From NCBI RefSeq assembly GCF_018873765.1, contig NC_057916.1:32463501-32527500 (forward strand): a stretch of 64,000 nucleotides of DNA. The letters run 5' to 3'. Shown here in pieces: positions 9,668 through 61,410 of this stretch. The translations under genes were made by a program, and so were the position numbers. The stretch's first letter is position 1. Every line of letters begins with the position of its first letter. This DNA is from Telopea speciosissima (taxonomy: Eukaryota; Streptophyta; Magnoliopsida; Proteales; Proteaceae). The notes beneath the pieces are model-generated. The model worked only from the letters and a program-made list of their open reading frames with translations. It had not been told where the DNA came from and did no database searches.

Positions 9668-10432
9668 ATGTGGAACAGAGTTCTCCTCCTTTTGGGATTG
9701 TTGATTTTGGCCTTCGTTCAGGTCATAGATGGTTTCTCTCATCACCACCACCACCAGCTCGACCATCAATCCGCAGTGCATGATACCGATGGCAATGAGC
9801 TCCAAGCAGGGATGCCGTACTACATTGTCTCTGCTATCAGGGGAGGCGGCGGCGGAGGTGTTTCGCTAGGAAGGAGAGAGAGCTCCACCAGTCAAAGTCA
9901 CACGGCTCACACTCCAACAGTGAAACAGAGCTCCTACGACAGGAACATGGGTACCCCAGTGATGTTCTCTCCAGCATCCTCAGAACACCCAGAATTGGAA
10001 TTGCCGTCTTCTGCAGAAGAAGAAGAGGGAACGATGATAATTCGGGAATCGATGGACATGAACATTTGCTTCTCTGGAATGGACAATAGGGTGTGGCAGG
10101 TGGAAGAGAGGAGGGAGCAATCCGGAGGATGGTGGTGGTCGTCGTCAAAGAATTCGAGTTTGAGGTATGTGACGGTGAAGGGGAAGCCAGGGCACCCAGG
10201 GGAGTCGACAATGAGGAACTGGTTCAGAATCGAGAGGATAAGCGAGGGTAACCCTGTATATAGGATCGTCTACTGCCCCAACGTCTGCGAGTCTTGCCAT
10301 GTGGTGTGCGGGAGGGTTGGGATCACCAAGGAAAACGGCGAGCGATGGCTATCGGTTTCAGAGCACAGAGAGTTTCCTTTTGTCTTCGTCAAAGCTAGGC
10401 AGTCCCAGGACAACAAGAAGAAGGATGAATAG
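9668..10432 (+). CDS. Kunitz (STI-family) beta-trefoil protein, array gene 1
   Basis: Intact intronless gene of 254 aa. A signal peptide (about residues 1-22) is followed by five His. The Kunitz signature is present as VHDTDGNELQAGMPYYI. The C-terminal core is YRIVYCPNVCESCHVVCGRVGI with the family's ending ...FPFVFVKARQ. The family is known for secreted or vacuolar serine or cysteine protease inhibitors, and for members that have lost inhibition. Here the first disulfide appears absent and the loop after GTPVMFSP is acidic with no Lys/Arg, so classical trypsin inhibition is doubtful. The start at MWNR is chosen because it is conserved in all six copies and begins the signal peptide. A Copia element separates it from its promoter and the 5' UTR is shortened. 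Residues from about 108 to 207 come from a tract identical to gene 6. The open frame is intact, but expression is uncertain. Confidence 0.9.
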   Translation: MWNRVLLLLGLLILAFVQVIDGFSHHHHHQLDHQSAVHDTDGNELQAGMPYYIVSAIRGGGGGGVSLGRRESSTSQSHTAHTPTVKQSSYDRNMGTPVMFSPASSEHPELELPSSAEEEEGTMIIRESMDMNICFSGMDNRVWQVEERREQSGGWWWSSSKNSSLRYVTVKGKPGHPGESTMRNWFRIERISEGNPVYRIVYCPNVCESCHVVCGRVGITKENGERWLSVSEHREFPFVFVKARQSQDNKKKDE

Positions 10433-10666
10433 AGAAAGAAAGCAGAGTTGAATATTGGAATAAGAGAAGAAAGAGTCTAGCTATGACGCTGGCTGATCGA
10501 GCGGGAATAATAGCAGAAGGAATGAGTAAACCGATCCAAAAGTTCTTCTAATTCTCCAACCAAACAATCCCTGCAAAAGAAAAAAGTTGCAATAAAAAGG
10601 TTCTGTCCGAAGCAACATTAGTTAATCAGTCGCCTTTGATTATTCTATCCTGTATCAATCAGTTTT

Positions 10667-10703
<37 letters not shown>

Positions 10704-11224
10704 TTGCAATTCCAATTTCTTACTTTTCAATAGCTTTTTGAATCCTTTATATTTTCAGGTGGTAAATTTCAGGGTAAAAAGATCATTGCTTAGTGGCGTG
10801 GCCCCTGCACTAGTACGAGGGCAATGAGAGTGCATAAGGGCATCAATATGGATGAGATTATTTTATTTTATTGGGGTGGATTGGTAATTCACACACTCTA
10901 GTGTCTAAGCACAAGGGCCACACGACCTCACAACGTTCTTTTTCCCCTATTTAGAATTAAGAAAATAACTTTAAGGAGAAGGTTCTCTCACCAAGCAGAT
11001 TCGGGGACCACACCAAAGACGTGGAATAAAATGAAATCGTGTGTAGGAAGAGAGCAAGGTCATTTCTTATGAGGAGGAGAAAAATAATTAGACATTGGTG
11101 CTAGCGTACCTTGCCCCGATGGCTCAGAGAGCCTTTTCCCTTACTTTAATAGTTAATATAATAATTTTAATGGGTAGAATATGTGTTATCAGAAAAATAC
11201 ATAAAAAGTATTCAGTATGGGAAT
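10433..11224 (+). other. 3' flank of Kunitz gene 1 (tandem-unit sequence)
   Basis: Sequence shared with the 3' flanks of genes 2-4: a probable 3' UTR, a (TC)n microsatellite at about 10669-10701, then a segment beginning GGTGGTAAA and running through GATCATTGCTTAGTGGCGTG that recurs after the other genes. No gene is seen. Confidence 0.7.
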
Positions 11225-11849
11225 TGATAAACCCAAAATTACACTGGTCAATCGTGAGCCACCACGTGTCCTGGCCCAAGTGGAAAGACCATCCCAAGCC
11301 CGGCCACCTTACGTCTCACTTGGCTAGCCCGGAAGGCAAAGGACCAACAAGGAAGTCCAGGAACCAAGACCAAGTATTACACGCAAGCTACTACCGTCAT
11401 CGACAAGATATGTATTACCTCATCAGTTGAGGGTACCACCTGCCAGAGGTACAATTCCAGACGGACTCATGCACCAAAGACCTTATCCAATATACAAGGG
11501 CACATGCATGTCTACCTACCAGGAACATCCTCCCTACTGGGACTCTACCTCCCATGGGAGAGCAACCAACCAAGAGATGAGTCCTACCAACTGGGAACGT
11601 CTATCTACTACGAGGACTACTCGTCACCAACTGGGACTCTCCATACCGCCACACTCCACTATAAATACGGAGGTACTCTACCCCATTAACCCATCTGGAA
11701 TTCTAACTATTCATCGATTTGCTTAGAGAGATCTAACTTAGGCATCGGAAAGTCCTAGGCTGGAACCACACCAGTTCTCCTTTGTCACCCAGGTCCTTTT
11801 GCAGGTTACGACACTCAAAGGGACCACCAGGCGATTTCTTGACGCAATA
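11225..11849. mobile_element. Solo LTR, 625 bp
   Basis: The homologous segment of another unit reads straight through (near 48690-48715, TATGGGAATAAGTAAC), while here 625 bp interrupt it. The 5-bp duplication GGAAT flanks the insert (11220-11224 and 11850-11854). It starts TGATAAACCC and has a TATAAATA-like box at about 11662. No internal coding domain is present, as expected for a solo LTR left by recombination. The superfamily cannot be told from the sequence alone. Confidence 0.65.
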
Positions 11850-12127
11850 GGAATAAGTAACAAGGATCGGATGAAGATGTATAATGTGCAATCTGATCAT
11901 CATGACAAGTATCATGGTGACTATCGAAGTCACTTTAGCATGAAATTCGGTTGGTAAATAAAAGAAGGGAAATTATCAATGCCACCCCCTGACGTTTGCA
12001 TATATTTTAAAGCACACCCACTAAGTATCATAATATCAATCGGTACCCATTTTTTAACGGCGTTAACCTCTAAAATTCTTTTGACCAAAATACTCTCTAC
12101 ATTTAAAAAAAAATACACGAAAAAATG

Positions 12128-12430
12128 CTACTGATCTGGATAAGGTAGATGTTGAAGGGATCCCCTTTACGGACTCGAGGAAGTAAGCGTTGAGCTTCCT
12201 ATCGTTTTGCTCAGGAGCGAAGCCAACCTTGCCGCCTTTGAGATCTATAATGTTAACGAACCCGAGGATCCAGGAGCAGAACCCATGGCCTGATACATGG
12301 TGGCGGAGAGAGCAATGTCGTGGAGCTTCTTGGTGCCCAAGTAGTTAAGGAGGACGTGGAGGGAGCGAACGTTCTTTATGGAGAAGATGGAGAGATGCTT
12401 TGATAGTAGGTCCGACATGTCCCCATTTTC
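12128..12430 (-). pseudogene. Captured fragment of a fasciclin-like arabinogalactan protein gene
   Basis: Minus-strand frames match the end of a fasciclin domain of plant FLA proteins: SDLLSKHLSIFSIKNV, LHVLLNYLGTKKLHDI, ATMYQAMGSAPGSSG, and then in a shifted frame FVNIIDLKGGKVGF and NAYFLESVKGIPFNIYLIQI. The frame change lies near 12275. The upstream side carries a GTTGCAG-like acceptor just before the start of the homology, as if an intron edge was captured with it. Known of the family: GPI-anchored cell-wall adhesion glycoproteins. Here only the fragment survives inside the MULE and it is unlikely to make a functional protein. Confidence 0.8.
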
Positions 12431-12755
12431 TCCACCTGCAACTCACCTTGCCCCTCTCTGCTCCATCTCTCTTGCCACCACCCCTGTGAGGCCCCGCCCC
12501 TGTTCCTGGGCTCCCCTGCCCGCTGCTGCCATAGCGTCTAGCGCATCCAACACCCACTACTAGAGAAATCCCTATAACTGATTAACCTGAAAAAGAAGAC
12601 ATCTTCGATTCATAGATAAACATCATATCCTTTGGATCCACCGGACAACGACCCAACCCGAGAGTTGGATGAAAACGAGAACCTGACGTTTCTACAGAAA
12701 ACAGACATGCAATGCCTCCTCGTCCTCCACAGCCCGGATTTAAACCTAACCCAAG

Positions 12756-13025
12756 TCACCAGGCGAAGAAGGTGATGCAACCAATGATAACATCCAACGC
12801 TATGGTTATGATTATCGAACGACGGAGAAAGGTGGCATGTCGACGCTGCTGGTCGTAGCCGTAGGAGGATGGGTTGTAGTATGGGCTTGGCCCTAGCGGT
12901 GGAGTTCCGTATGGGTAAGTTGTGCCTGCGTTGTTTGGGTAACCGCCGGTGGAGTGGTAGCTTGAAGTCGCCGCCGGTGGACACCCTGTCTCTGGTTTCG
13001 ATTGGTTCTCCGCTGTTGACGTCAT
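12756..13025 (-). pseudogene. Captured 5' fragment of an NHL/LEA2-type (NDR1/HIN1-like) gene
   Basis: An ATG at 13025 opens an 89-codon frame. The N-terminus is Pro/Tyr/Gly-rich with YPYGTPPLGPSPYYNP, followed by QQRRHATFLRRSIIITIAL and a membrane segment ending IGCITFFAW. This is the layout of NDR1/HIN1-like (LEA2) proteins: a proline-rich cytosolic tail, an Arg-rich FLRR junction and one transmembrane helix. The frame stops right after the helix, where the family would continue with an LVLRP-type segment, so the extracellular LEA2 domain is lost or out of frame. It lies inside the Pack-MULE next to the FLA fragment. It could be transcribed from a captured promoter but this cannot be judged here. 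Confidence 0.72.
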
Positions 13026-14051
13026 ATGTCCTAGAGAAAATTGAAACTTGAGCGAGAGAGGGTGAAGGTGAAAAAAAAATACTATAATCGAATACCCCAA
13101 CCCTGCCACAAGCCGCTGCAATCGTATAAAAAAATTCTTCTTTTGTTTGTGTTTGTACAGGGTCCCCAATTTGCAATATGGAAATTTAAAAAAAAAAAAA
13201 AACAATATCAAAATAGCATGAAGAAGACGAAGACCTGCAAATTCAGGAACATTAAAAAAAAAAACAAAAAAAGAAAGAAACATATGAAGAGTGCTGCGGG
13301 ATTTGCTTTTTGGAAGGAAGGTTGAAGAAGACCTTTGTTTTGTTATAAAAGGGGCCACCTGTTGGATGAATAGAGGTTTGACTTACAAGAAGCGATTTCG
13401 TAGAACTAAGCAATGAACATTTACTTTTGGGGTTTTCCACGGCTCAATCTCGATGGGCATGTCTGTACACCAAACTAACTTCTGCTTTCCAAGGTCGTCG
13501 GCTGAGTGTGAGAAAGAAGAAGAAAGGTATGTGGGTGTTTTAGTTGAAAGGGTAGATTAGGTACGTCACCCATTATGAAGGGTATAATTGTCTTTTTAAA
13601 AATATTAAGCAGCTGACATCATCACTTAACGGTTCTTAACTAACGGAAGGGGGTCTAGGTGGAATTAATTTGGTAAAGCAGGGGGTGGCGTTGACATTAT
13701 GGTAGTTAGTGGGTGTGCCTTAAAATATAGGCAAACGTCAAGGAGTGGCACTGATAATTTCGCATAAAAGAATGTAGGCACTAGTGCACTACTTGTGCAT
13801 CAGAGCTGCCACATCAAGAAAAAGAAAGCCATGAGGAAAGAGTAGAATTTATGTGAGCTTCCAAGTTCCAACTCCCATTGATAGTGGAAATCTAAAATGA
13901 CGATTGATAACGTAATGACCCAAATAATCCATAAAGGATATTTTAGTCTATTAAGTAGAGACATGGGGGTTGTTGCTTCAGCTTCCATTAGGAATACTCA
14001 GAGACAATCCTCACATAATCCTCAAGCCAAAAGTCGACGAGGCAATAAAAG

Positions 14052-15182: not shown

Positions 15183-15333
15183 GTTAGTTATTTGCCGTAA
15201 TGACACTGGTCACAATAACTATCCACTCAATTTTTTTTTTATAATTTATTAAAGGGTGAAGGCTAAGAAAATCCAACAGAAACCTACAACTCCAACTGAG
15301 TCCGTATTAGGTCCCCACATGCAATTTGGATCC

Positions 15334-17619: not shown

Positions 17620-18381
17620 ATGTGGAACAGAGCTCTCCTCCTTTTGGGGTTGTCGATTTTGTCCTTCGTTCAGGTCATTGATGGCTTCTCTCATCATCAC
17701 CACCACCACCAACTCAACCATCAATCCGCAGTGCATGATACCGACGGCAATGAGCTCCAAGCAGGGATGTCGTACTACATTGTCTCTGCTATCAGGGGAG
17801 GCGGCGGCGGAGGTGTTTCGCCAGGAAGGAGAGAGAGCTCCACCGGTCAAAGTCACACGGCCCACATCCCAACAGTGAAACAGAGCTCCTACGACAGGAA
17901 CATGGGTACCCCAGTGATGTTCTCTCCAGCATCCTCAGAACACCCAGAATTGGAATTGCCGTCTCCAGAAGAAGAGGGAACGATGATAATTCGGGAATCG
18001 ATGGACATGAACATTTGCTTTTCTGGAATGGACAATAGAGCGTGGCAGGTGGAAGAAAGGAGGGAGCAATCCTCAGGGTGGTGGTCGTCTTCGTCGAAGA
18101 ATTCGAGTTTGAGGTATGTGACGGTGAAGGGGAAGCCAGGGCATCCAGGGAAGTCGACAGTGAGGAACTGGTTCAGAATCGAGAGGATAAGCGAGGGTAG
18201 CCCTGTATATAGAATCGTCTACTGCCCCAACGTGTGCGAGTCTTGCCATGTGTTGTGCGGAAGGGTTGGAATCACCAAGGAGAATGGCGAGCGATGGCTA
18301 TCGGTTTCAGAGCACAGAGAATTCCCTTTTGTCTTCGTCAGAGCTAGGCAGTCCCACGACAACAACAGCAAGGATGAATAG
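17620..18381 (+). CDS. Kunitz (STI-family) beta-trefoil protein, array gene 2
   Basis: 253 aa, intronless. Signal peptide about 1-22; six His at 25-30; Kunitz signature at 38-54 (VHDTDGNELQAGMSYYI); Gly run at 60-65; GTPVMFSP at 96-103; acidic stretch ELELPSPEEEG at 109-120; Trp/Ser-rich segment at about 150-160; and the C-terminal Cys cluster at 202, 206, 209 and 213 (C-x3-C-x2-C-x3-C). A fifth Cys at 133 sits where the family has NIKF. The Cys that normally precedes the PLTVVQ-like strand is absent (HIPTVKQ at 82-88). I infer a secreted protein with only the second, C-terminal disulfide region of the family. Differs from its sisters by VLCG for VVCG and a shorter acidic run. Upstream promoter is complete. 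Confidence 0.92.
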   Translation: MWNRALLLLGLSILSFVQVIDGFSHHHHHHQLNHQSAVHDTDGNELQAGMSYYIVSAIRGGGGGGVSPGRRESSTGQSHTAHIPTVKQSSYDRNMGTPVMFSPASSEHPELELPSPEEEGTMIIRESMDMNICFSGMDNRAWQVEERREQSSGWWSSSSKNSSLRYVTVKGKPGHPGKSTVRNWFRIERISEGSPVYRIVYCPNVCESCHVLCGRVGITKENGERWLSVSEHREFPFVFVRARQSHDNNSKDE

Positions 18382-18622: not shown

Positions 18623-18661
<39 letters not shown>

Positions 18662-23053: not shown

Positions 23054-25533
23054 AGTTCGGAAAAAACCAAATCGAGAAGGAAATTGTAGTCTGCTTTGAA
23101 CGTGTACTCGCTATTTCAAAGGAGATATTTGCCCCCACACAACAAAATTCTCCTTCAGGATTCAACAAAGCAATAAAAAATGAAACACAGAATTTTTTTG
23201 AGAGATACTGATTGTAAGAAAGAGAGAGATGTTTCGTTTGAACACTGCACTTCTATTTTATAGAAGTGAAGCACCTCTTCTGAACAGACATATCTATTTA
23301 TTTTGTATTTAAACCATTAGATCGATTGCCATCTGATCTAACAGTCCAGATTAAACCAAAGATGAAGCTGTTCACAACAGTCATACCATTTCAAACGTGA
23401 CCGTAGGATCTTCTAATCCGAAGGATCTGATCACGTCACAAAATCAACGTACCAGATCAGTTCGCTTGCATCACGATGCAAGCGTACAAAGTGCTAAGTG
23501 CGTGTGTATGCCACTAACGCCTCTGCAGCCCACTACCCATGCTGCATTTGCACAGTGGGCTTTAAAACAACAGTCATATCAAAAGAATATTTTTTGCCAT
23601 GGAAGGAGGATCAGATAATGCTACTTAAGATGATGACTCCTGACTTCGCCAAACTCGAATGTTTTGATGGCACCAACTACACCCGCTGGCAAGATAAGAT
23701 GGTGTTCCTGTTGACTCAACTGAAGATCTTTTATTTGCTAAGTTATGAATTGCCGCTGTGAAGAAAGAAAGAAGTAAGCGTGAAGAAGATGAGTTAATCT
23801 GTAGAGGATATATTCTAAACAGTCTCTCAGATCGTCTTTGTGATTACTACAAGCCAATCAAGTCACCATATGAAATTTGGAAACAGATTGAAGAAAAATA
23901 CAAAATTGAGAAAATAGGTATGAGCAAATTTTTCACCATGAAATATTTTGAATTCAATATGAGTGATGGTGTTAGTATTATGAATCAATTTCATGATTTT
24001 CAAGTTTTAATGGAAAAACTCCGTGATCTTGAAATCATAGTTTCTGATTTACTCCAAGTAGGGGCGATTATATCAAAACTTCCCCCCAGTTGGAATGATT
24101 ACAGAAAGAAACTTCTTCATATGACAGAAGATTTGCCAGTTGGACAACTCGAAAAGCATCTACGAATTGAGGAAGAGGAATAGAATTCGTGATGGCTTGG
24201 TCATAGGTTTTAAAGTGAACAATGTTGAACAAAGTGGAGTTAAGAAGTTTCATAAGAAACTAAAGATCAATAAGAAGGGAGTTTTCAAGAATAATAGCAA
24301 AGACAAGAAAGACAGACCATGTTTTCATTGTGGAAAAAAGGACCACTATATTCGTGATTGCAAGTATCAGAAGAATAGTAGTATTCCAGACAAAGCAAAT
24401 GTTGTTGAATCTACTTGATTGATTGTTCTTCTGATTTATGACATGCTCGTTTAGGACACTTGAATTTTAGATACATGAAAAATATGTCAAAACAAGACTT
24501 AATCTCTTATAAGCATGAAAATAAAAATAAATGTGAAGTCTGTGTTCAATCAAAAATGGTTAAGAAGTCTTTTTCAAATATTGAGAAAAATTCACAAATC
24601 TTGGAATTAATACATTCCGATATTTGTGAAATTAATGGCCTCTTAACTAGAGGAGGAAAAATGTACTTTATAACCTTTATAGATGATTGTACAAGATTTT
24701 CACATGTATTTTTATTGAGAACTAAAGATGAAACTTTTGACATGTTTAAAAAATATAAAGCAGAAATAGAAAATCAAAAGGATAAAATGATTAAAATTCT
24801 TAGAAGTGATAGAGGTGGAGAATATTTTTTCAATGATTTTTCTGCATTCTATGAAGAATATGGGATAATACACCAAAGGTCTGCACCCTATACACCTTAG
24901 CAAAATGACACAGTTGAAAGAAAAAATAAGATACTTGTTAATATGATAAATGCTATGTTATCAAGTGCTAATTTACCAAATAACTTGTGGGGTTAGACAT
25001 TATTAATTGTATGTCATATAAGTAATAAGATTCTTTTTAACAAAATACAATTTCCATTTCGATTTAATTTTTTCCAACAATTCAATCTAAACAGACATAT
25101 CTATTCATTTTGTATTTAAACCATTAGATCAATTGTCATCCGATCTAACGGTCCAGATTAAACCAGAGATGAAGCTGTTCACAATAGTCATACCATATCA
25201 AACGTGATCGTAGGATTTTCTAATCCGATGGATCTGATCAAGTCAAAAAATCAACGTACCAGATCAGATCGTTTGCATCACGTGCGTATGCCACTAACGC
25301 CTCTACAGCCCACTGCCCACGCCGTGCGTTCGCGTGCGTGCTCGAAAGGCTACGCCGTCCTTGCATATACACCGTAGAATGTCTCTCTTTTTCGGTTTAA
25401 CTCAAGAGGTAAAGAAGGTAATATAATAAATACGATTTATAACTCTTGTAGTTTTTCGATGTGGGACTAAAGCACTTTACTCAAATAATATAATATTTAT
25501 TTAATCTCTCATCCTATTACAATCTATCTAACA
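23054..25533 (+). mobile_element. Ty1/Copia retrotransposon, short and degraded
   Basis: Insertion in the tandem-unit sequence between ATATGACAGTTCC and CTCGTACCTAGG, with GTTCC repeated at both borders (23049-23053 and 25534-25538). Direct repeats of about 240 bp lie near both ends (about 23281-23540 and 25086-25320). Going along the plus strand: a UBN2-type gag domain (about 23640-24180), a CCHC zinc knuckle (CFHCGKKDHYIRDC, about 24320-24361), GAG-pre-integrase and the start of the integrase core (about 24450-24900). Reverse transcriptase and RNase H are not seen. The element is internally deleted and broken in several places. Confidence 0.8.
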
Positions 25534-25538
25534 GTTCC

Positions 25539-31640: not shown

Positions 31641-32420
31641 ATGTGGAACAGAGCTCTCCTCCTTTTGGGGTTGTCGATTTTGGCCTTCGTTCAGGTTATT
31701 GATGGCTTCTCTCATCATCACCACCACCACCACCACCACCAACTCAACCATCAATCCGCAGTGCATGATACCGACGGCGATGAGCTCCAAGCAGGGATGT
31801 CGTACTACATTGTCTCTGCTATCAGGGGAGGCGGCGGCGGAGGTGTTTCTCCAGGAAGGAGACAGAGCTCCACCAGTCAAAGTCACACGGCCCACATCCC
31901 AACAGTGAAACAGAGCTCCTACGACAGGAACATGGGTACCCCAGTGATGTTCTCTCCAGCATCCTCAGAACACCCAGAATTGGAATTGGAATTGCCGTCT
32001 GCAGAAGAAGAAGAGGGAACGATGACAATTAGGGAATCGATGGACATGAACATTTGCTTCTCTGGAATGGACAATAGAGCGTGGCAGGTGGAAGAAAGGA
32101 GGGAGCAATCCTCAGGGTGGTGGTCGTCGTCGTCGAAGAATTCGAGTTTGAGGTATGTGACACTCAAGGGGAAGCCAGGGCACCAAGGGGAGTCGACAGT
32201 GAGGAATTGGTTCAGAATCGAGAGGATAAGCGAGGGTAGCCCTGTATATAGGATCGTCTACTGCCCCAACGTCTGCGATTCATGCCATGTGGTGTGCGGA
32301 AGGGTTGGGATCACCAAGGAGAACGGCGAGCGATGGCTATCGGTTTCAGAGCACAGAGAGTTCCCTTTCGTCTTCGTCAGAGCTAGGCAGTCCCACGACA
32401 ACAAGAAGAAGGATGAATAG
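31641..32420 (+). CDS. Kunitz (STI-family) beta-trefoil protein, array gene 3
   Basis: 259 aa, the longest of the six, intronless and intact. Its extra length comes from a nine-residue His tract after the signal peptide and a longer acidic region (an added LE repeat before LPSAEEEEG). The Kunitz signature reads VHDTDGDELQAGMSYYI, with D for N. The C-terminal cluster is YCPNVCDSCHVVCG; the CDSC variant is shared only with gene 6. As in its sisters, the first-disulfide cysteines are missing and no Lys/Arg occurs in the loop after GTPVMFSP. Expected to be secreted; inhibition of trypsin-like proteases is doubtful. Promoter and 3' flank are complete, so it is likely expressed. Confidence 0.92.
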   Translation: MWNRALLLLGLSILAFVQVIDGFSHHHHHHHHHQLNHQSAVHDTDGDELQAGMSYYIVSAIRGGGGGGVSPGRRQSSTSQSHTAHIPTVKQSSYDRNMGTPVMFSPASSEHPELELELPSAEEEEGTMTIRESMDMNICFSGMDNRAWQVEERREQSSGWWSSSSKNSSLRYVTLKGKPGHQGESTVRNWFRIERISEGSPVYRIVYCPNVCDSCHVVCGRVGITKENGERWLSVSEHREFPFVFVRARQSHDNKKKDE

Positions 32421-41145: not shown

Positions 41146-41916
41146 ATGTGGAACAGAGCTCTCGTCCTTTTGGGATTGCCGATTTTGGCCTTCGTTCAGG
41201 TCATAGATGGCTTCTCTCATCATCATCACCACCACCACCACCACCGGTTCGACCATCAATCCGCAGTGCATGATACCGACGGCAATAAGCTCCAAGCAGG
41301 GATGTCGTACTACATTGTCTCCGCAATCAGGGGAGGCGGCGGCGGAGGTGTCTCGCCAGGAAGGAGAGAGAGCTCCACCAGTCAAAGTCACACGGCCCAC
41401 ACCCCAACAGTGAAACAGAGCTCCTACGACAGGAACATGGGTACCCCAGTGATGTTCTCTCCAGCATCCTCAGAACACCCAGAATTGGAATTGCCGTCTG
41501 TAGAAGAAGAGGAAACGATGATAATTCGAGAATCAATGGACATGAACATTTGCTTCTCTGGAATGGACAATAGAGCGTGGCAGGTGGAAGAAAGGAGGGA
41601 GCAATCCTCAGGGTGGTGGTGGTCGTCGTCAAAGAATTCGAGTTTGAGGTATGTGACAGTTAAGGGGAAGCCAGGGCACCCAGGGGAGTCGACAGTGAGG
41701 AACTGGTTCAGAATCGAGAGGATAAGCGAGGGTAGCCCTGTATATAGGATCGTCTACTGTCCAAACGTGTGCGAGTCTTGCCATGTGGTGTGCGGGAGGG
41801 TTGGGATCACCAAGGAGAACGGCGAACGATGGCTATCGGTTTCAGAGCACAGAGAGTTCCCTTTTGTCTTCGTCAGAGCTAGGCAGTCCCACGACAACAA
41901 CAGCAAGGATGAATAG
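41146..41916 (+). CDS. Kunitz (STI-family) beta-trefoil protein, array gene 4
   Basis: 256 aa from the conserved MWNR start; a frame open to 41026 would add 40 residues but is judged non-coding because of the TATA position. Nine His follow the signal peptide and then RFDHQ. Signature VHDTDGNKLQAGMSYYI, with K for E. The acidic stretch is ELELPSVEEEE. The C-terminal cluster YCPNVCESCHVVCGRVGI is complete and the protein ends RQSHDNNSKDE like gene 2. The first disulfide is missing as in all copies. Intact, with complete promoter. It is closest to gene 5 in the acidic stretch (EEEETMII) and in the shared R after the His tract. Confidence 0.92.
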   Translation: MWNRALVLLGLPILAFVQVIDGFSHHHHHHHHHRFDHQSAVHDTDGNKLQAGMSYYIVSAIRGGGGGGVSPGRRESSTSQSHTAHTPTVKQSSYDRNMGTPVMFSPASSEHPELELPSVEEEETMIIRESMDMNICFSGMDNRAWQVEERREQSSGWWWSSSKNSSLRYVTVKGKPGHPGESTVRNWFRIERISEGSPVYRIVYCPNVCESCHVVCGRVGITKENGERWLSVSEHREFPFVFVRARQSHDNNSKDE

Positions 41917-42807: not shown

Positions 42808-45800
42808 TCATTGGAACCGAAACCTACTCCTTTCAAGTAGATCCCACTCTATATTGTTGTGAACAAAGCTTGGTGCTTCTCCCCAGCTCTGGGATTCCTG
42901 TGTTGAAGCGCTCCTCTTCGCCATAAGATCAGCAACTGTATTTGCTTCTCTGTAATTGTGAGTAATTCTCCATATAATACTATTAAGGTAGCCGGCAACC
43001 TCTAGCCAAAATTGACGAAACCTCCATGGAATCTTACTACTCCTAATGGACTTCACCACCGCTTTAGCATCGCACTCTATCCATAGCAGCTGAATGCCTT
43101 TACCTCTGGCCAACTGAACACCAAAAAAGAAAGCAGGCAGCTCAGCAAAGAAGTTTGTATTTATTCCCAGGTACTGCACCAAGCTTCCCTCTGGCCTTCC
43201 TAGGCTGTTGCGAATTATCCCTGCTGCACTAGCATGACCCGGATTTCCAATGGAACAACCATCCATATTTAACTTCCTCCAATGCACATCTGGTTTTCTC
43301 CATAAGATTTCTCTAATTTGGGTGGCCTTCGCATTTGGAAAAGAAGCTCCAATTTCGCGAGCAATAACCAGGTCCTGTAGAGATTTAATGGTACACCTCA
43401 TTAGAGCAGACGCATCCTTCAGGTCTGACTTTAAAGTGCGCAAGATGTCGGTTGTTCTCTTCCCATTCCCTTCAAAATGACGCCTGTTTCTGTCACTCCA
43501 TATGTGAAATGGAACTACAACAAAACCCGCTAACCAAACTGAAGCTAAGGCACTGGTTTGGGCTTTTTCCTTCCACCATACTATCAACTCTTGCATTGAA
43601 TCCTTTGCCGGCCAAGCTTTTTGAAACATTGCTAGAAAACCCTGCCACAACCTAACAGAGAAAGAGCAATCAATGAAGATGTATTTCTGGGTTTCATTTG
43701 CTTTCAAGCATAGGTTGCACCGTGACACCATAGGGACGCCTCTCTGTGTAACCATATCATCCGTTGGCAGCTTAGAATGCAATAGACGCCATCCAAAGAC
43801 CGAGTGTCGAGGCTGCAAATAAGAGGCCCAGACCACCGAATGCCAACCCGTTCTACAACCTTCCCTTTTTAGCCTCTCCCATGTTGACTTCACCATAAAA
43901 TTCCCCTGTTGGGATAGGGTCCATACTCTGCAGTCCTCAGTCTTGATGGTTGGTAGAGCTATGGACCTAGCCTGGTTGACAACTTGCTGTAGCACCGCCG
44001 ATTCCACTACAGGGAAACCCCATTCAACATTTTTAATAAAACAGCTAGCGGGGTGTGTAACGTCCTTAGCCAGGTCCCATACCCCTGAAGATCTTGGTGA
44101 GCTGAAACAACAGTCCCCTGTAGCCATCGATCATGCCAAAAGTCAATGTTTGCTCCATCACCCACTATCCAAGCTTCGTGGTCTGAAACAAAGCCCCACA
44201 TCTTCCTAATTCCGTTCCAAATTAAGGATGGGGAATTAAGCTGAATTTTAATCAATCCCTTTGTTGTGAACCTCGCCCAAAGAAAGTTGGTAATTAGTGT
44301 GTTTTCCGACTTAATTCCCCAACAGAGCTTACAGAGGAGCGCCTTGTTCACATCCCTTAACTTCCTAATGCCCAAACCCCCTTCATCACGAGGCTTGCAT
44401 ACCATCTCTCATCTCACAGTAATTCCCTTGGACGATTCCGGGTCCCTACTCCAAATAAAATTACGTACCCACCTCTCCATCATAGTTAATAAAGACATAG
44501 GCCACCAATAAATAGAGAAAGTATGAATTGGCATGCTTGAGATGACAGACCTTACCAATTGAATTCTCCCTGCCATTGAAATTAACTTTCCTTTCCATCC
44601 TGCAAGCCTTAACTTGAACCTGTCCATCATTGACAACAGAGCTTCCTTCCTAACCCTTCCTTTAAAGTTATCAATCCCCAAGTATTTGGTGGGGAATTTG
44701 TTGTCCGAGAATCCAATGATGTCCTTGATCCTGGCCTTCCTAGCAGCGCTTACATTACATAAGAACAGTTTACTCTTCTGCAAATTAATACTTTGGCCCG
44801 AGTAACTTTGATAATCCCCCCAGGAATGCTTTCAGCCATAGCACAGGGCGAACACCTGCTTTAATAAATAGGAAAACATTGTCAGCGAACAATAAATGGG
44901 TGGGGCCCTGGACCCCCCTTGGCCCTGTAAGTGGGGCAATCTTTCCATTCGCTCTTAGGTGTGCCAAACCCCTGCATAAAACTTCCTCAACGACAATAAA
45001 CAACAGAGGGGCCAAAGGGTCCCCTTGTCGAAGCTCCCTCTCAACTCCAAAAAAACCCACTGGACCTCCATTAATTAAAATTGAGAGCTTTGCTGAAGCT
45101 AAGAGCTGATGAATTAGATTAACCTAAGTGTCACTAAACCCGAACTTCCTCATAGCATCAAACATGAAGTCCCATTCCATAGTGTCATATGCTTTCTGAA
45201 TATCCTGCTTCAAACCCATTCCTCCTCCAAAAGATTTCCCATGCAGGGAGTTTGTAAGCTCAGAGGCCGCACAAATAATAGAAAAAATGTTCTTCCCCTT
45301 TTGAAATGCACCTTGCTCTTCAGAAATCAGTTTAGGCAGGAGCCCCGACAATCGGATGGCCAGGATATTTGGTAGCAATTTATACAAGAAATTCCCTACA
45401 CAAATCGGCTAAAACTTGTCCAAGGTGATAGCCTCCTCCACTTTAGGCACTAGGGTGATGAAATTGTTATTAACACCCTTAGTAATGATGCCCTCACAAA
45501 AAAAGTTTATAACTGCCCTGCACACATCCTTCTCAATGATCTTCCAACACCTTCTATAAAATGTGCCTGGAAAACCATCGGGTCCAGGGGCACTGTTTGG
45601 ATCTAGATCAAACATTGCTGCTTTAATCTCTTCTTTAATTGGGACTGCAGTAAGGAACCCATTGTCTTCCGCTGTAAGCACTTGAGGAATGCACGAAAGT
45701 AACTCCGGGCGGGCCATAGAGGGGGTACTTTTATGGAATGCCTTATAGTAATCAGACACATAACTGCTAATCTGGTTAATATCACTGAGGTGAGAACCAT

Positions 45801-46945
45801 CTGCCTTCTTCAACACCCTAATAAGACACTTTGATCACCTTATCCTTGCAGCAAGGTGGAAAAATTTAGTGTTGCGATCCCCACAGGTGAGGTACTTGAT
45901 TCTCAACTTCTCTGCCCACAATTTCTCCTGCAAGGAAATAGCCCTCACATAATCCTGCCTAGCATGCTATTCACACTGCACCAAGAACTCCGAGCTTCCC
46001 ACAATTTCAATGGTCTCATGTGCATCCTCCAAAGCATTTCTAGCACGCTCAACTTCCACATTCATGTTTGGGAACTCTGATCTGGACCACTCCCTCAATG
46101 TAACCTTTAACCTTTTTAGCTTCTGAGTAACCACATAGAAAGGAGTCCCTGCAACATGGTCAGCCCAAGAGTGCTCTACAACAACCATAAAATCATCATG
46201 ATCCAACCAAAACCGTTGCAGCCTGAAAGGACAATTCTTCGATTTTGGCACTACATCCGCTGCCACCAGAATTGGCGAATGATCTGAGACTGATCTCGAA
46301 AGCACACGCTGGTAAGCATCACCATAAGCATCGAGCCATGCCGAATTACACAGACTTCTATTGAGCACTGCAGCAGTGTTCCCTCTCCTTCTATTATTAC
46401 TCCAAGTGAACTTCTTCCCTTTAGTCGGCAGTTGGAATAGCGAGGTGGCATCTAGAAACACCGTAAACTCCTGAGCAGATCCATTATTGATAGCACCAGG
46501 TCCCTGCCTCTATGACGCCAATAGTGTGGCATTGAAATCCCCTAAAACCAGCCAAGGCAGCGCTGATATTGATTGGCTTAATAGGTCTACCCATAACTCT
46601 CTCCTTCAAGCACGGAAACCACTAGCATGGATCGAGGTTAGGAAAAACCTCTCCCCCCTTCCATCACGCAACACAGTAAGTTGTTGATCCGATGAGCTAA
46701 CAATCACTGGCTTAGAAACACTGTTCCTCCAGATGATCCACAAATTTGGGTGCTTTCCCTCTCTTTCATTATGAATGCACTCAACACAGAAACCCAAGTG
46801 CTTAAAAAATAATATTGGAAATTTCTCTGGACATTGGCTCACCCACACAAATCACGTTAGGTGCATGAATCTTCACCAGAATTCTTAAGGCAGCCTCAGT
46901 GTTGCTGTTAAGAATTTCACGCAAATTCTAGTACACAACCTTCAT
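42808..46945 (-). pseudogene. LINE ORF2 (endonuclease, reverse transcriptase, RNase H)
   Basis: Starts at an ATG overlapping the ORF1 stop (TAATG), with a stop soon after in MKVVY*NLR where the family has a Trp. The exo-endo-phosphatase domain spans about 46850-45970 (SDHSPILV motif). Reverse transcriptase spans about 45816-44409 with SAPGPDGFPGTFYRRCW, QDIQKAYDTMEWDF and LRQGDPLAPLLFIVVEEVL; the catalytic FADD is FADN here, which should abolish activity. The zinc-binding RT domain (CNLC...FIDCSF) and RNase H (LNMDGCSIGNPG, FFAELPAFFFG, IECDAKAVVKS, HNYREANTVADLMAKRS) lie in a clean 439-codon frame at 44127-42808. That last frame is well preserved compared with the rest. Confidence 0.9.
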
Positions 46946-48240
46946 TAAAAACCAGAGGGTTTAGCGGCATCTCGTGCGGCTCTGTGTGGCAGATTCTGCA
47001 CCTTCTTCGGCTGCTTACCCGCTCTCTTATTCAACACTGGCGTGAAAGAACCCGCGAGCACTGCATCCACTTGTCTGACCTCATTAAAAGCCCTAATGGG
47101 GATTAACGGGTCATAAAGAACAACCTGGTCCCCCCCGCTAGGAAAAAACTCCTGGTCACACAGCACCCTTCCCTGTGCAGGGGAAGACCCCTGTGAGTCG
47201 CTAGTGCCTTGGCAAAGAAAAACCACCTCAATAGTCCCTCCCACGCTTGAAATCTCTGGTTGCACAATAGGCCCGTCCCCCATGCTCACATCGACCGAGC
47301 CTTGCTGCCCCTCTATCGACTCACTTCTCATCTCAGGCTACACTACCCCACCCATCCCCTGATGCACTACCATAGCCGTACAAGTGGAATTGCGCAACAC
47401 CTCCTGAATCGGAGAACCAGTCCCTCCATGGCACGCAACCCCTATGTTTGAGGCACCAAAACCCTCCTTATGCCGCCCATCAAAGTCCTCAATCTGATGT
47501 ACCACAAAGGTCTCGGTGGCAGGGCAAATTTGCACTTCATGCTGCTGTGAAGCAATAACTCCCTGCACTGTCGTCCCTCGTACCGAGGCCCCTGACGAAG
47601 CTCTCCTACTCCTCCTCCCTACTCTGGCATCAACATACTCCGCTCCAGGGATAGCAGCCTCCACTCGAGTCACCTGATGGCGAGTAGGGCAATTCTCCGA
47701 CCGATGCCCATACTTCTTGCAATCCCCACAACGTGAAGGTGGATCCTCAAACACCACCGATTGGTTAAACAAAAACAACTCAGCACTCCCAGGCTGCTCC
47801 CGTTCCACCAAAACTTATGAAACCCTAAGCTGTGTTTCATCCACATCCACACAAACCCTAGAAAAATGACCATAGAACAAGGCTTTGGTCTTTCGATCAA
47901 TGGCTACCGGCCGTCCCACCGCATTAGCTATGGAAAAAAGTATATCATTGTACCAATACTCCTGCGGTAGACCTGGAAAGCGGATCCAGATTAATCGATG
48001 AGACATCTGTTGCATATCAACGTTGAAATCCGGACTCCAGCGCTGAAACCTAAGCAGTTGCCCTCCAATACGGCAAGGCCCTCGTCTCCAAATCATCAGC
48101 ATATCAGAATCCAAATCAAATTTGAATAAAATAAACCCTTTACCTAGGGTTTTTAACTCCACCGTCCCCGAGAGGGCCCATGAGTCTTTTACAAAACTCT
48201 TAACATCATTCATCGACAAATACCTGAAGTTTGCTGCCAA
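46943..48240 (-). pseudogene. LINE ORF1 (nucleic-acid-binding, CCHC zinc knuckle)
   Basis: One frame over about 430 codons, interrupted by a TAA at about 47812 and a TAG near 47335. It begins with the DUF4283-like region (SFVKDSWALSGTVELKTLGK, RGPCRIGGQLLRFQRWSPDF, VDVDETQLRVS), continues with the knuckle CGDCKKYGHRSENC, and ends in a low-complexity tail KPSGF. The ORF may start further upstream towards 48520 in a shifted frame. In plant L1 elements this protein binds the element RNA. Confidence 0.8.
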
Positions 48241-54711: not shown

Positions 54712-55476
54712 ATGTGGAACGGAGCTCTCCTCCTTTTGGGGTTGTCGATTTTGGCCTTCGCTCAGGTCATAGATGGCTTCTCTCATCACCAACACCACCA
54801 CCACCGGCTCTACCATCAATCCGCAGTGCATGATACCGACGGCAATGAGCTCCAAGCAGGGATGTCGTACTACATTGTCTCTGCTATCAGGGGAGGCGGC
54901 GGCGGAGGTGTTTCGCCAGGAAGGAGAGAGAGCTCCACCAGTCAAAGTCACACGGCCCACACCCCAACAGTGAAACAGAGCTCCTACGACAGGAACATGG
55001 GTACCCCAGTGATGTTCTCTCCAGCATCCTCAGAACACCCAGAATTGGAATTGCCGTCTGCAGAAGAAGAGGAAACGATGATAATTCGAGAATCAATGGA
55101 CATGAACATTTGCTTCTCTGGAATGGACAATAGAGCGTGGCAGGTGGAAGAAAGGAGGGAGCAATCCCCAGGGTGGCGGTGGTCGTCGTCGAAGAATTCG
55201 AGTTTGAGGTATGTGACAGTGAAGGGGAAGCCAGGGCACCCAGGGGAGTCGACAGTGAGGAACTGGTTCAGAATCGAGAGGATAAGCGAGGGTAGCCCTG
55301 GATATAGGATCGTCTACTGTCCCAACGTGTGCGAGTCTTGCCATGTGGTGTGCGGGAGGGTTGGGATCACCAAGGAGAACGGCGAACGATGGCTATCGGT
55401 TTCAGAGCACAGAGAGTTCCCTTTTGTCTTCGTGAGAGCTAGGCAGTCCCACGACAACAACAAGAAGGATGACTAG
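54712..55476 (+). CDS. Kunitz (STI-family) beta-trefoil protein, array gene 5
   Basis: 254 aa, intact and intronless. The His tract is interrupted by Gln (HHQHHHH) and followed by RLYHQ. Signature VHDTDGNELQAGMSYYI; acidic stretch ELELPSAEEEE; C-terminal cluster YCPNVCESCHVVCGRVGI. Private changes include GYRIVYC where all others have VYRIVYC, PGWRWSSS in the Trp-rich segment, and a final DD. The Val to Gly change lies in a core strand next to the Cys cluster and could destabilise the fold. As in the other copies the first-disulfide cysteines and a basic reactive-site residue are absent. Promoter is complete. Confidence 0.92.
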   Translation: MWNGALLLLGLSILAFAQVIDGFSHHQHHHHRLYHQSAVHDTDGNELQAGMSYYIVSAIRGGGGGGVSPGRRESSTSQSHTAHTPTVKQSSYDRNMGTPVMFSPASSEHPELELPSAEEEETMIIRESMDMNICFSGMDNRAWQVEERREQSPGWRWSSSKNSSLRYVTVKGKPGHPGESTVRNWFRIERISEGSPGYRIVYCPNVCESCHVVCGRVGITKENGERWLSVSEHREFPFVFVRARQSHDNNKKDD

Positions 55477-57368: not shown

Positions 57369-57933
57369 CATAGTACAAGGGGTGTACAAGTAATTTGCCC
57401 TAAAATAAACTATTTTAATAAACGATAAAAAAAAAAAAAAGTAAACTTAACATGCTTTGAAGGAAACCAAAATGTATTGTTTTATGGATAAAACTTATTA
57501 TTTCACTAATGCTCTAATGATCTACATTTTGTCAAAAATAGAAAAAAGTAAGAAAATGATAAAATATACCTGAAATGTGAAAAACACAAAATATGAGTTA
57601 TCCCCCAACTTAAGTGGAGATGGGCGATCGACTCACCTTCCTCTTATCGAAGAGAATAATGATTATGTGAAATGGATTTCTTTACTCAGACTTCGAGTAG
57701 AGTAACGATTGATAATAGAACTTTCGCTACTCAAACTTCGGATAGGGTAATGGCTAAAAATGGGACTTTCGCTACTAAGACTTCAGATAGAGTAACGACT
57801 TGAAAAAGGGCTCAAATGTGACCAAGAATGATAAAAAATGAGATTTTGGGCGATTCGAGTCACAGACAGGGTCCTAAGGTTGAGGGCTACTCTTTCAAAA
57901 TGGGGGTGGGGGAGACCCCTATTTATACCAGGA

Positions 57934-58730: not shown

Positions 58731-59038
58731 AGGGTATTTATGAACCCCAAGGAAAAGTGAATTATTTCATTTTCTTGGCTACTAACATTGTAGTAGGAAC
58801 TAGGAACATTCATGGTTCACACAAAATTTTTTCCCACCCTATGGATGGTTTTAAAAAATACTTAAATCTAGAAAGGTATTTACGCAATGAGAATTTTTTT
58901 TTTGTTTTTTTGGGGTAGGTGAGCTGCGGGGTTAGGAATGGGAATGTAGGATTATGCAATTTATCTTCCACAAGGGAAACGTTATTTGCCCGAGCGACCC
59001 TGTATCATTATCTATCAACTTTTTTTTTTTTGGGTAAT

Positions 59039-60312
59039 GGGCAATTTTAGAGTCAATTACTATTACTATCTTATACTTAGCCTATATTTACTAAAACTAT
59101 CCTGTCGGAAACTTCTTTTCTAATACTATCCTGCTTTTAAACTTTTAAATCTCCTTCTACCCTTATGTTTTTAAATACTCAGATTGTCCTTCATTTTCAC
59201 CTAATAACCTGCTAATCTATTTAACCTACAATTCATCTTCTGCTTTTTACTTCTTTTTTTTCATTAAAATAGTAAAAAATGAAAGCACCCACCCACTTCT
59301 TCTCTCTCCCATTTTTTACTCAATTTTTTTTTGTTATTTCTTCAATTTTTTATTCAACATTTCATTCTCATTGTTTTTCTTTGAACAGATCATGGTTCTA
59401 AGTACTGGTATCATATCCCCCATATCGGGCAATACGTACCACTTTTGCTTGTCACCGATTCCAATACCGTATTGATAGCATGATACAAACAAGGGGTAAA
59501 ATGGTCAGAAAACTCATTTCTTAAGGAGATTCAGGGGTAATTTTGCCCGATACAGCCAATCCAAGTCGATATCGTATCGGTATAGTATCGATTTTGTATG
59601 TTACCGATTCTCTTTCCGATACCGTGTACTAAAACCATGGAATAGATCGACACTCTTCAAAAATATTAAAAAGTAAATTAAATAGAAATAGGAAGAGAGA
59701 GAAGTGGGGTGCTTTGAAGAGAGTCGACGCACGGTATTGGAACGGGTATCGGTAACCTACAAAACCGATACAGTATCGGCCTGGATCGACTATATCGGGC
59801 AAAATTACCCCTAAATCTCCTTTAAAAATGAGTTTTCTGACCATTTTACCCCTTGTCCATACTGTGCTACCGATTCGATATTGATGACTAGCAAAACAAG
59901 TATGTATCGCCCGATACGATACCGATACTTAGAATCATGATCTGTTCGAACTTCGAAGAAGAACGAAGAGAATGAAATGTTGAATAAAAAATTAATTAAA
60001 TAAAAAAATTGAAAAACTAACAAAAAAAAAAAAACAAATAAAATAAAAAATGGGAGAGAGAAGAAGTGGGTGGGTGCTTTCATTTTAATATTTTAATTAC
60101 AAAAAAAAAAGTAAAAAGTAGAAGATGAATGGGAGGTTAAATAGATTAATAGGTCAATAGATGAAAAGGAAAGAAAATTTGGGTATTTAAGAACATGAGG
60201 ATAGAAGGAGATGTAAAAGTTTAAAAACAAGATAGTATTAGAAAAGAAGCTTAAGATAGGGTAGTTTTAATAAATATAGTTTAAGGGTAGGGTAGTGATA
60301 GTAATTGCCCCC
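59039..60312. mobile_element. Foldback element, 1.27-kb near-complete palindrome
   Basis: The left half (GGGCAATTTTAGAGTCAATT, AAAGCACCCACCCACTTC, GAACAGATCATG, then ATCGGGCAATAC) is repeated inverted in the right half, ending GATAGTAATTGCCC. The two arms of roughly 600 bp meet at about 59670. The inner parts of the arms contain GATACCGAT-type repeats and match each other as well, so this is a long foldback or a MULE with extreme inverted repeats. No target duplication was recognised. It ends about 30 bases before the Kunitz promoter homology of gene 6 begins. Confidence 0.75.
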
Positions 60313-60344
60313 ATATTTTATTGAGAGGGGGCTATCTAACAACT

Positions 60345-60651
60345 CGGTTTAACAGCATAGTGGTTTTCGTTCCGACATTGAATTGAATCTTCCCAAATCC
60401 CAATCACTTCGGTCAAAAACGCATTGATCAGGCAAACTTCAACAAGTGTCCCCAAGATCCATTCAAATGGGAGAAAACATATCCAACCCGTTATGCTCAG
60501 CGCCCTATAAATTGGCCAGATCATAACCTTCCTCTTCATCTCAATTCTCAGTTAATACATTCTCGCATTCCATCAACACAGTTTGTTTGTTTTCTAAGCA
60601 GCACCATTTTCTCTCCCTGGACAACCTATCTAATAAGATCGATCATCCATC
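60345..60651 (+). promoter_or_regulatory. Promoter and 5' UTR of Kunitz gene 6
   Basis: Homology to the other promoters begins abruptly at AACAGCATAGTGG and includes TATAAAT at 60506-60512. The more distal upstream block found before genes 2-5 is missing and is replaced by the foldback element. Confidence 0.78.
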
Positions 60652-61410
60652 ATGTGGAACAGAGCTCTCCTCTTGGTGGGGTTGTCGATTTTGGCCTTTG
60701 TTCAGACTATAGATGGCTTCTCTCATCATCACCACCACCACCAGCTTGACCATCAATCCGCAGTGCAAGATACCGACGGCAATGAGCTCCAAGCAGGGAT
60801 GCCGTACTACATTGTTTCCGCTATCAGGGGAGGCGGCGGAGGGGGTGTCTCGGTAGGCAGAAGAGAGAGCTCCACCAGTCAAAGCCACACGGCCCACACC
60901 CCAACGGTGAAGCAAAGCACCTACGACAGGAACATGGGTACCCCAGTGATGTTCTCTCCAGCATCCTCAGAACACTCAGAATTGGAATTGCCGTCTTCTG
61001 CAGAAGAAGAAGAGGGAACGATGATAATTCGGGAATCGATGGACATGAACATTTGCTTCTCTGGAATGGACAATAGGGTGTGGCAGGTGGAAGAGAGGAG
61101 GGAGCAATCCGGAGGATGGTGGTGGTCGTCGTCAAAGAATTCGAGTTTGAGGTATGTGACGGTGAAGGGGAAGCCAGGGCACCCAGGGGAGTCGACAATG
61201 AGGAACTGGTTCAGAATCGAGAGGATAAGCGAGGGTAACCCTGTATATAGGATCGTCTACTGCCCCAACGTCTGCGATTCATGCCATGTGGTGTGCGGGA
61301 AGGTTGGGATCACCAAGCAGAACGGCGAGCGATGGTTATCGGTTTTAGAACACAGAGAGTACCCTTTCGTCTTCATCAGAGCCAGGCACTCTCACGACAA
61401 GGATGAATAA
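60652..61410 (+). CDS. Kunitz (STI-family) beta-trefoil protein, array gene 6
   Basis: 252 aa, intact and intronless, with the most divergent ends of the family: FVQTIDGFS in the signal peptide, VQDTDGNELQAGMPYYI in the signature (Q for H), KQSTYDRN, and the tail VCGKVGITKQNGERWLSVLE...YPFVFIRARHSHDKDE. In contrast, the middle (about residues 110-208) is identical in DNA to gene 1. The CDSC variant in the Cys cluster is shared with gene 3. Six His follow the signal peptide. The family-wide features hold: no first disulfide, acidic loop, complete C-terminal cluster. The promoter is short but complete to the TATA box. Confidence 0.92.
   Translation: MWNRALLLVGLSILAFVQTIDGFSHHHHHHQLDHQSAVQDTDGNELQAGMPYYIVSAIRGGGGGGVSVGRRESSTSQSHTAHTPTVKQSTYDRNMGTPVMFSPASSEHSELELPSSAEEEEGTMIIRESMDMNICFSGMDNRVWQVEERREQSGGWWWSSSKNSSLRYVTVKGKPGHPGESTMRNWFRIERISEGNPVYRIVYCPNVCDSCHVVCGKVGITKQNGERWLSVLEHREYPFVFIRARHSHDKDE

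What the first reader, a model, noticed from the sequence alone, without database searches (positions are those of the whole stretch)
9668..61410. Six-gene Kunitz array whose proteins have lost the first disulfide and the basic reactive site
All six proteins keep the Kunitz signature and the C-terminal C-x3-C-x2-C-x3-C cluster. They lack the cysteine before the PTVKQ strand and its usual partner, and the loop after GTPVMFSP is an acidic stretch (ELELPS...EEEE) with no Lys or Arg. Seen directly: conserved open frames, conserved acidic loop, a new cysteine in NICFSG. Known: in STI inhibitors the loop at this place carries the P1 residue, Arg or Lys for trypsin. Inference: the family has moved to another role or target. 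All six remain open over a region full of insertions, which suggests selection for the altered form.
Basis: partly seen in the sequence, partly recalled or inferred. Interest (0 to 1): 0.7.

Follow-up and report, generated by a model that had tools for sequence, protein, structure and literature searches.

The report
Kunitz proteins lacking their first disulfide
A plant carries a cluster of intact genes for Kunitz-type proteins that lack the usual first internal disulfide bond and a trypsin-type reactive residue; the loss is old and shared by nearly all such genes found in this genome, so it is a real and unusual variant of a familiar protein family whose job has not been tested.

Summary
Confirmed: six intact, intronless Kunitz (PF00197) genes lie at the stated places. 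Each keeps the C-terminal C-x3-C-x2-C-x3-C cluster, lacks the first two canonical cysteines and has no Lys/Arg in the reactive-loop position. The window's own genome (823 Mb) holds 26 Kunitz loci found here, 23 open from Met to stop. Of those 23, 22 lack both cysteines and form one clade (support 100/99); one is a normal six-cysteine miraculin-like gene. So the disulfide loss is one old event (dS saturated between some subfamilies; domain pN/pS outside the loop 0.16-0.18), not something this array did. Most likely these are secreted, defence-type Kunitz proteins that do not inhibit trypsin, with a long, changeable loop. Target and activity are untested; both structure models were poor. New variant of a known kind; moderate interest.

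The parts
9668..10432 (+). K1: Kunitz_legume ORF, 254 aa, five Cys
17620..18381 (+). K2: Kunitz_legume ORF, 253 aa, five Cys
31641..32420 (+). K3: Kunitz_legume ORF, 259 aa, five Cys
41146..41916 (+). K4: Kunitz_legume ORF, 256 aa, five Cys
54712..55476 (+). K5: Kunitz_legume ORF, 254 aa, five Cys
60652..61410 (+). K6: Kunitz_legume ORF, 252 aa, five Cys
9968..10039 (+). K1 reactive-loop position SPASS...TMI, 24 aa, net charge -7, no K/R
17923..17988 (+). K2 reactive-loop position, 22 aa, net -6, no K/R
31953..32027 (+). K3 reactive-loop position, 25 aa (extra GAATTG unit), net -8, no K/R
41458..41523 (+). K4 reactive-loop position, 22 aa, net -7, no K/R
55018..55083 (+). K5 reactive-loop position, 22 aa, net -7, no K/R
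60955..61026 (+). K6 reactive-loop position, 24 aa, net -7, no K/R
10067..10069 (+). K1 Cys134, the cysteine of NICFSG (TGC); same codon in K2 18016, K3 32055, K4 41551, K5 55111, K6 61054
10274..10309 (+). K1 C-terminal cluster CPNVCESCHVVC (same cluster in K2 18223-18258, K3 32262-32297, K4 41758-41793, K5 55318-55353, K6 61261-61296)
2838..3073 (+). K1's original promoter and leader (91.5% identical to K2's; TATA at 2989), cut off from the gene by an LTR element
3073..9639 (-). copia-type LTR retrotransposon (LTRs 3073-4033 and 8669-9639) inserted in the K1 leader

Best explanation
The six genes are a tandem branch of an old, genome-wide clade of miraculin-like Kunitz (PF00197) proteins. 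That clade lost the Cys1-Cys2 disulfide once: Cys1 by replacement, Cys2 most likely by a 4-6 residue loop deletion. It kept the four-cysteine C-terminal cluster. Shown: homology, cysteine pattern, single loss on the tree, strong purifying selection outside the loop, a longer and faster-changing segment at the reactive-loop position. Inferred: the proteins are secreted and fold as Kunitz beta-trefoils held by the C-terminal cluster; without a basic P1 (Ser by eye, from SPAS) they do not inhibit trypsin; the long loop is the part that meets changing partners (other proteases, such as subtilisin-, elastase-, papain- or aspartic-type enzymes of attackers), as in a plant defence family that diversifies by tandem duplication. 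Confidence is for the structural and evolutionary part plus 'not a trypsin inhibitor'; a defence role with another protease target alone I would put at about 0.45.
For: PF00197 hits for 23 of 23 aligned proteins. Own-genome search: 26 loci, 22 of 23 intact ones lack Cys1 and Cys2. Tree: the 22 on one side against 5 six-Cys references (L009 and four PDB chains), 100/99, one change of state. Domain pN/pS outside the loop 0.18 in the window (0.11-0.29), 0.13-0.19 in three arrays; omega 0.13-0.38 between subfamilies where it can be computed, dS saturated for other pairs. Loop pN 2.4 times the rest. No K/R in the six loops, whereas durian DzTI-4, among the nearest solved relatives, was crystallised with bovine trypsin (8wk1, title) and has Lys in that loop (8wfo letters). 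A Nicotiana Kunitz-like protein with Ser for P1 showed no trypsin inhibition in vitro (the paper says data not shown; PMC5742262, passages); CrataBL with Ser P1 is a weak inhibitor (Kiapp 43 uM for trypsin; PMC3688800, passages).
Against: No activity, expression or solved structure. Both AlphaFold2 models are poor (mean pLDDT 34.1 and 41.2), so disulfides, loop position and fold are not shown. Fast loop evolution is equally expected from relaxed constraint: measured against the rest-of-domain pS, the loop is at about 0.39, slower than neutral, with no sign of positive selection (arithmetic); for the six alone the loop does not differ clearly from the rest. CrataBL inhibits trypsin weakly with Ser at P1, so 'none at all' is not certain. 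Some alignments place Cys134 opposite Cys2 (5 of 5 shown, 4 of 5, 2 of 5), so a shifted Cys2 is not fully excluded; Cys1 is absent in either case.
Confidence: 0.6

Rival explanations
1. The proteins no longer inhibit any protease; the loop is released from constraint and has filled with slippage repeats, and the fold is kept for storage or another structural role (as in non-inhibitory Kunitz relatives).
For: Loop pN/pS about 1.0 pooled over three arrays; acidic and His runs are built of GAA, GAATTG and CAC/CAT units of varying number; loop length 22-38 aa within the clade.
Against: Loop amino-acid change is still below the neutral rate set by pS of the rest (about 0.39); the loop starts with xPA and is followed by IxE in 21 of 22 clade members, L019 being the exception.
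Confidence: 0.3
2. A metal-binding or pH-sensing Kunitz protein: the His-rich mature N-terminus (FSH... in the window, HSHHHHSSHSQSH in the C10 array) binds Zn, Cu or Ni and is the new active part.
For: 5-11 His in the N-terminal segment in 16 of the 17 C1/C5/C10 members (L023 has 4), 1-3 in the five C11/C6 members, 0 in the six-Cys L009.
Against: His number varies freely between copies by CAC/CAT repeats; cleavage giving N-terminal F-S-H (an ATCUN-like start, recalled motif) is a guess by eye; one literature search for His-rich Kunitz with copper gave 3 papers, none a precedent by title and start of abstract (listing only).
Confidence: 0.08
3. Still a trypsin-type inhibitor, using a basic residue outside the canonical loop.
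For: Kunitz inhibitors with other reactive loops exist (potato double-headed type, PMC3688800 passage); the proteins are rich in Arg after NICFSG (VEERREQ).
Against: Nothing in the sequence points to a substitute loop; no structure could be modelled to look for one.
Confidence: 0.07

Closest known systems
Durian (Durio zibethinus) trypsin inhibitors DzTI-4, -5, -6, -9, -10, -12 ('21 kDa seed protein-like', PDB 8whc, 8win, 8wq6, 8wfo/8wk1, 8we5, 8wio)
   Same: Best sequence hits, E 1.3e-27 for 8whc; similar N-terminal DTDG...YYxVSAI signature and CPSVCESC C-terminal cluster; DzTI-4 solved with bovine trypsin (titles).
   Different: They keep Cys1 and Cys2 and have a loop less than half as long, with Lys in some (NLDTKDD) (letters); no His run in the solved chain, where the match starts at residue 4.
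Miraculin-like proteins of Vitis vinifera (5yh4) and Murraya koenigii (3iir)
   Same: Kunitz family, four-Cys C-terminal cluster in 5yh4; next-best hits.
   Different: 5yh4 has Cys1 and Cys2 and a short loop TPVNPKK; 3iir has seven Cys and the two regular Kunitz disulfides (PMC8758671, passage).
L009, the only six-Cys miraculin-like gene found in the same genome (C2:71413776-71414390)
   Same: PF00197, intronless, no K/R in the loop.
   Different: Cys1 and Cys2 present, 9-residue loop, no His run; 34% identical to K4.
Leguminous Kunitz inhibitors with 0, 1 or 2 Cys (BbCI, BrTI, BbKI, SWTI, ILTI)
   Same: Also fewer cysteines than soybean STI (PMC9100506 passages).
   Different: The window proteins keep the four-Cys C-terminal cluster and lose only the first pair. 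Which disulfide the legume proteins keep was not checked here.
CrataBL (Crataeva tapia)
   Same: Five Cys, one of them unpaired (Cys74, six residues before Cys80, seen as sulfenic acid) and Ser at P1 (PMC3688800 passages); our Cys134 replaces a Lys that lies seven residues before Cys2 in L009, so nearby.
   Different: CrataBL keeps both standard disulfides; that the two unpaired Cys share one site is not shown.

Membership tests
Kunitz_legume / STI superfamily (Pfam PF00197) | Score above the Pfam cut-off over nearly the whole profile | tested here: met
   114.1-119.5 bits against 25.9, profile 1-175 or 1-176 of 176; 23 of 23
Kunitz_legume / STI superfamily (Pfam PF00197) | Beta-trefoil fold | tested here: inconclusive
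   AlphaFold2 pLDDT 34.1 and 41.2. The 50 Foldseek rows shown, of 200 matches, are Kunitz-STI relatives by title or as recalled, but TM is about 0.3, rmsd 15-19, and the search also uses sequence
Classic Kunitz-STI trypsin inhibitor | Two disulfides, the first joining Cys1 and Cys2 (39-86 in soybean numbering, recalled) | tested here: not met
   No Cys in the Cys1 or Cys2 column in 22 of 22 clade proteins, nor opposite them in 12 of 12 pairwise alignments; some HMMER alignments put Cys134 opposite Cys2, but Cys1 is missing in every case
Classic Kunitz-STI trypsin inhibitor | Arg or Lys at P1 in the reactive loop | tested here: not met
   0 K/R in the loop of 6 of 6 window proteins
Classic Kunitz-STI trypsin inhibitor | Inhibits trypsin | not testable with these tools
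   needs an assay
Miraculin-like subgroup | C-terminal C-x3-C-x2-C-x3-C cluster (subgroup mark as recalled) | tested here: met
   22 of 23 aligned proteins, all six of the window; L023 lacks it
Miraculin-like subgroup | Nearest relatives are miraculin-like / 21 kDa seed proteins | tested here: met
   best PDB hits

The most novel reading that the evidence does not exclude
An ancient plant Kunitz clade gave up the disulfide next to the reactive loop and rebuilt the molecule into a different binding device: a long, fast-changing loop, a His-rich metal-binding N-terminus and, in the window's subfamily, a new surface cysteine that links two molecules. It largely replaced ordinary Kunitz inhibitors in this plant.
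Probability: 0.12. Interest if true: 0.6.

Novelty: new variant of a known kind. Interest (0 to 1): 0.36.

Why it matters
The first disulfide is commonly treated as a standard part of the Kunitz-STI scaffold. Here a whole clade of 22 intact genes in one plant has lived without it long enough for synonymous sites to saturate between some subfamilies, and the ordinary form is represented by the one gene found. That offers natural material for asking what the disulfide does for inhibition, stability and loop evolution, and it warns against annotating such genes as trypsin inhibitors.

Tried and rejected
Cys134 as the old Cys2 merely shifted: the evidence is mixed. HMMER alignments to durian chains place Cys134 opposite Cys2 in 5 of 5 shown, in 4 of 5 (not 8wq6), and in 2 of 5 with the central segment alone (8wi1, 8whc). 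In one search the better-scoring 3iir alignment and 8wq6 put it opposite Lys and Gln of the strand DLNVKF/DLNIQF with Cys2 in a 4- or 6-residue gap; the 5yh4 alignment there does not cover it. The MAFFT alignment with L009 and the three segment alignments (L009, 5yh4, 8wq6) also put it opposite Lys or Gln. Since the 13 clade members outside the window's subfamily have Arg at this place and no Cys there, I take Cys134 as new. An R-to-C change at a CpG was also rejected: the other clade members read AGA or AGG, the window subfamily TGC, so at least two base changes are needed.

Relatives elsewhere: scans of GTDB genome contigs and IMG/VR viral contigs with the window alignment and with a durian query found none. 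No plant collection other than the window's own genome was available, so whether other plants carry this clade is unknown. Papers: 10 searches listed no paper that, by title and start of abstract, describes this cysteine pattern; some lists were cut (20 of 25, 12 of 19, 12 of 39) and one search found nothing at all. This does not prove that none is in print, as subscription journals and sequence databases were not covered.

Structure: two AlphaFold2 jobs, one with the six mature window proteins and one with 21 of the 23 intact proteins (L015 and L023 left out), gave models too poor to place loop or cysteines. A strong claim that the six loops are conserved by selection was dropped after the gene-conversion and loop-rate tests. 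A degenerate pattern for the PVMF motif with 2 mismatches gave 12 hits where 9.06 are expected by chance, so it proves nothing; the six genes are its six exact hits.
Full report
OBSERVATION. The window holds six full-length open frames for Kunitz proteins on the + strand. Pfam PF00197 matches all six with 114.1-119.5 bits against a cut-off of 25.9, and each is open from Met to stop without an intron. The proteins are 252-259 aa, 87-94% identical in the tblastn comparison, each with five cysteines at the same places. The C-terminal cluster is intact. Canonical Cys1 is replaced (His in the 23-protein MAFFT alignment; Thr, Ser or His for K4 in the pairwise ones), and Cys2 most likely lies in a short deletion (the contrary HMMER alignments are told in Tried and rejected). 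The segment between FSP and IRES has 22-25 residues, net charge -6 to -8 and no Lys or Arg in any of the six.

THE WIDER FAMILY. The genome of the window is held (822.9 Mb; the window is C1:32463501-32527500). A PF00197 search gave 30 matches, which are 26 loci, because four loci match in two pieces. Six lie in the window. One intact copy lies 13.7 kb beyond it (L018) and one frameshifted copy 23 kb before it (L028). The rest are: eight on C10 (L010-L017), three at C11:38.67-38.69 Mb (L024, L026, L027), two at C11:44.8 Mb (L019; L020 with a stop), one each on C6 (L025), C5 (L021) and C2 (L009), and two more on C1 (L022 broken, L023 open but eroded). A protein search with L009 gave 26 matches at the same 26 places and no further six-Cys gene. 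The tool says such counts are lower bounds. Leaving out the broken L020, L022 and L028, 23 proteins were aligned. In 22 of 23 both Cys1 and Cys2 are absent; the exception is L009. With L009 and four PDB chains as six-Cys references, the 22 form one side of a branch with support 100/99, and the loss needs one change on the tree. Few references were available, and I did not take the cysteine columns out of the tree (the tool drops columns filled in under 30% of rows), so this supports a single loss but does not date it. Synonymous distance is 0.73 between the C1 and C10 groups, and above 1.2 or saturated between either of these and the C11 and C6 groups and among the latter, so the loss is old.

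SELECTION. Pooled pN/pS among the six is 0.24 (bootstrap 0.16-0.36), 0.18 in the Kunitz domain without the loop (0.11-0.29), and 0.54 in the loop (0.13-1.84), so the six alone do not settle the loop. Within three separate arrays (C1 with 7 genes, C10 with 8, C11 with 3) the rest of the domain has 0.13-0.19, the loop 0.51-1.49. Pooled, the loop has 1.03 against 0.16, and loop pN is 2.4 times that of the rest (1.34-3.95). The loop's own pS is low (0.05 against 0.14). Against the pS of the rest, the loop stands at about 0.39, so it is less constrained than the scaffold but slower than neutral; positive selection is not shown. Among the six, K1 and K6 are identical over 301 bases while differing at 47 of 753 sites in all (0 of 5000 permutations reach this), which I read as gene conversion across the loop; the other 14 pairs show no such tract at p below 0.04. 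A 56-base stretch from just after PTVKQ into the loop is identical in all six, synonymous sites included (permutation p 0.01). The six loops are therefore not six independent witnesses. The acidic run consists of GAATTG and GAA units whose number varies between copies.

WHAT IS SPECIFIC TO THE WINDOW'S BRANCH. Cys134 occurs in 9 of 23 aligned proteins (the six, L018, L021, L023); the other 13 clade members have Arg and L009 has Lys. No K/R in the loop holds for the six and L021. L018 and L023 carry one Lys, the C10 genes one or two Arg, the five C11/C6 genes three to six K/R, and the six-Cys L009 none. So the missing basic P1 is not tied to the missing disulfide. The N-terminal His run (5-11 His in 16 of 17 C1/C5/C10 members, 4 in L023) is absent from L009 and short in C11/C6 genes.

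CLOSEST KNOWN PROTEINS. The best solved relatives are durian trypsin inhibitors (8whc and others, E about 1e-27; names), one of which (DzTI-4) was solved with bovine trypsin. Next come the grape and Murraya miraculin-like proteins. Published Kunitz proteins vary from 0 to 5 Cys, and reactive sites other than Arg/Lys are known (PMC9100506, passages). Tandem arrays and no introns are usual in poplar Kunitz genes (26 of 29 genes intronless, 14 of 29 tandem), and 81.82% of tandem pairs there have Ka/Ks below 1, two pairs above (PMC11720115, passages). A Kunitz-like protein with Ser for P1 did not inhibit trypsin (data not shown in the paper; PMC5742262, passages). What I did not find described is a clade with the first pair lost and the C-terminal cluster kept; this rests on the ten searches named in Tried and rejected.

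MECHANISM. Shown: homology, cysteine pattern, conserved scaffold, variable loop. Inferred: secretion (hydrophobic N-terminus, by eye), two disulfides inside the C-terminal cluster, a free Cys134, loss of trypsin inhibition, and a defence role against other proteases. The structure models were too poor to help, and the Foldseek list of Kunitz entries on the second model rests partly on sequence.

K1 AND THE INSERTION. A copia-type element (LTRs 3073-4033 and 8669-9639, K2P 0.057) sits between K1's own TATA box (2989) and its start codon. At rates of 7e-9 to 1.3e-8 per site and year (recalled), that is 2-4 million years. K1 is still open, but it may owe this to conversion with K6, and its transcription is uncertain.

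VERDICT. The deeper finding is that the array belongs to an old, expanded, first-disulfide-free Kunitz clade. The claim of a conserved, selected acidic loop is weakened.

Noticed in passing
window 3073-9639: A copia-type LTR retrotransposon (RVT_2 and gag_pre-integrs pieces on the minus strand, LTRs 94% identical) separates K1's own promoter (TATA at 2989) from its coding frame, which nevertheless stays open.
   Followed up: partly
window 2989, 17473, 31494, 40994, 54563, 60506; L018:682, L021:466, L028 (minus): The TATA box CCCTATAAATTGGCC stands before all nine C1/C5-type copies looked at (six window genes, L018, L021 and the frameshifted L028); L022 and L023 were not looked at.
   Followed up: partly
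L010-L017 (C10:53.64-53.70 Mb): A second tandem array of eight similar first-disulfide-free Kunitz genes, six on the + and two on the - strand; five of the eight carry extra single Cys in the loop or N-terminus (SPAC, FCPAS, AIPCHS).
   Followed up: partly
window 42808-48240: What looks like a degraded LINE-type element on the minus strand between K4 and K5 (zf-RVT, RVT_3 and DUF4283 pieces; two frames between them gave no Pfam hit).
   Followed up: no
window 23749-24900: Pieces of another copia-type element (Retrotran_gag_2, gag_pre-integrs, rve) between K2 and K3.
   Followed up: no
window 12610-13382: A proline/tyrosine-rich minus-strand frame that ends in a hydrophobic segment looks like the start of an intron-containing plant membrane protein gene (LEA_2/NDR1-like by eye); no Pfam hit on either of two overlapping frames.
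   Followed up: no
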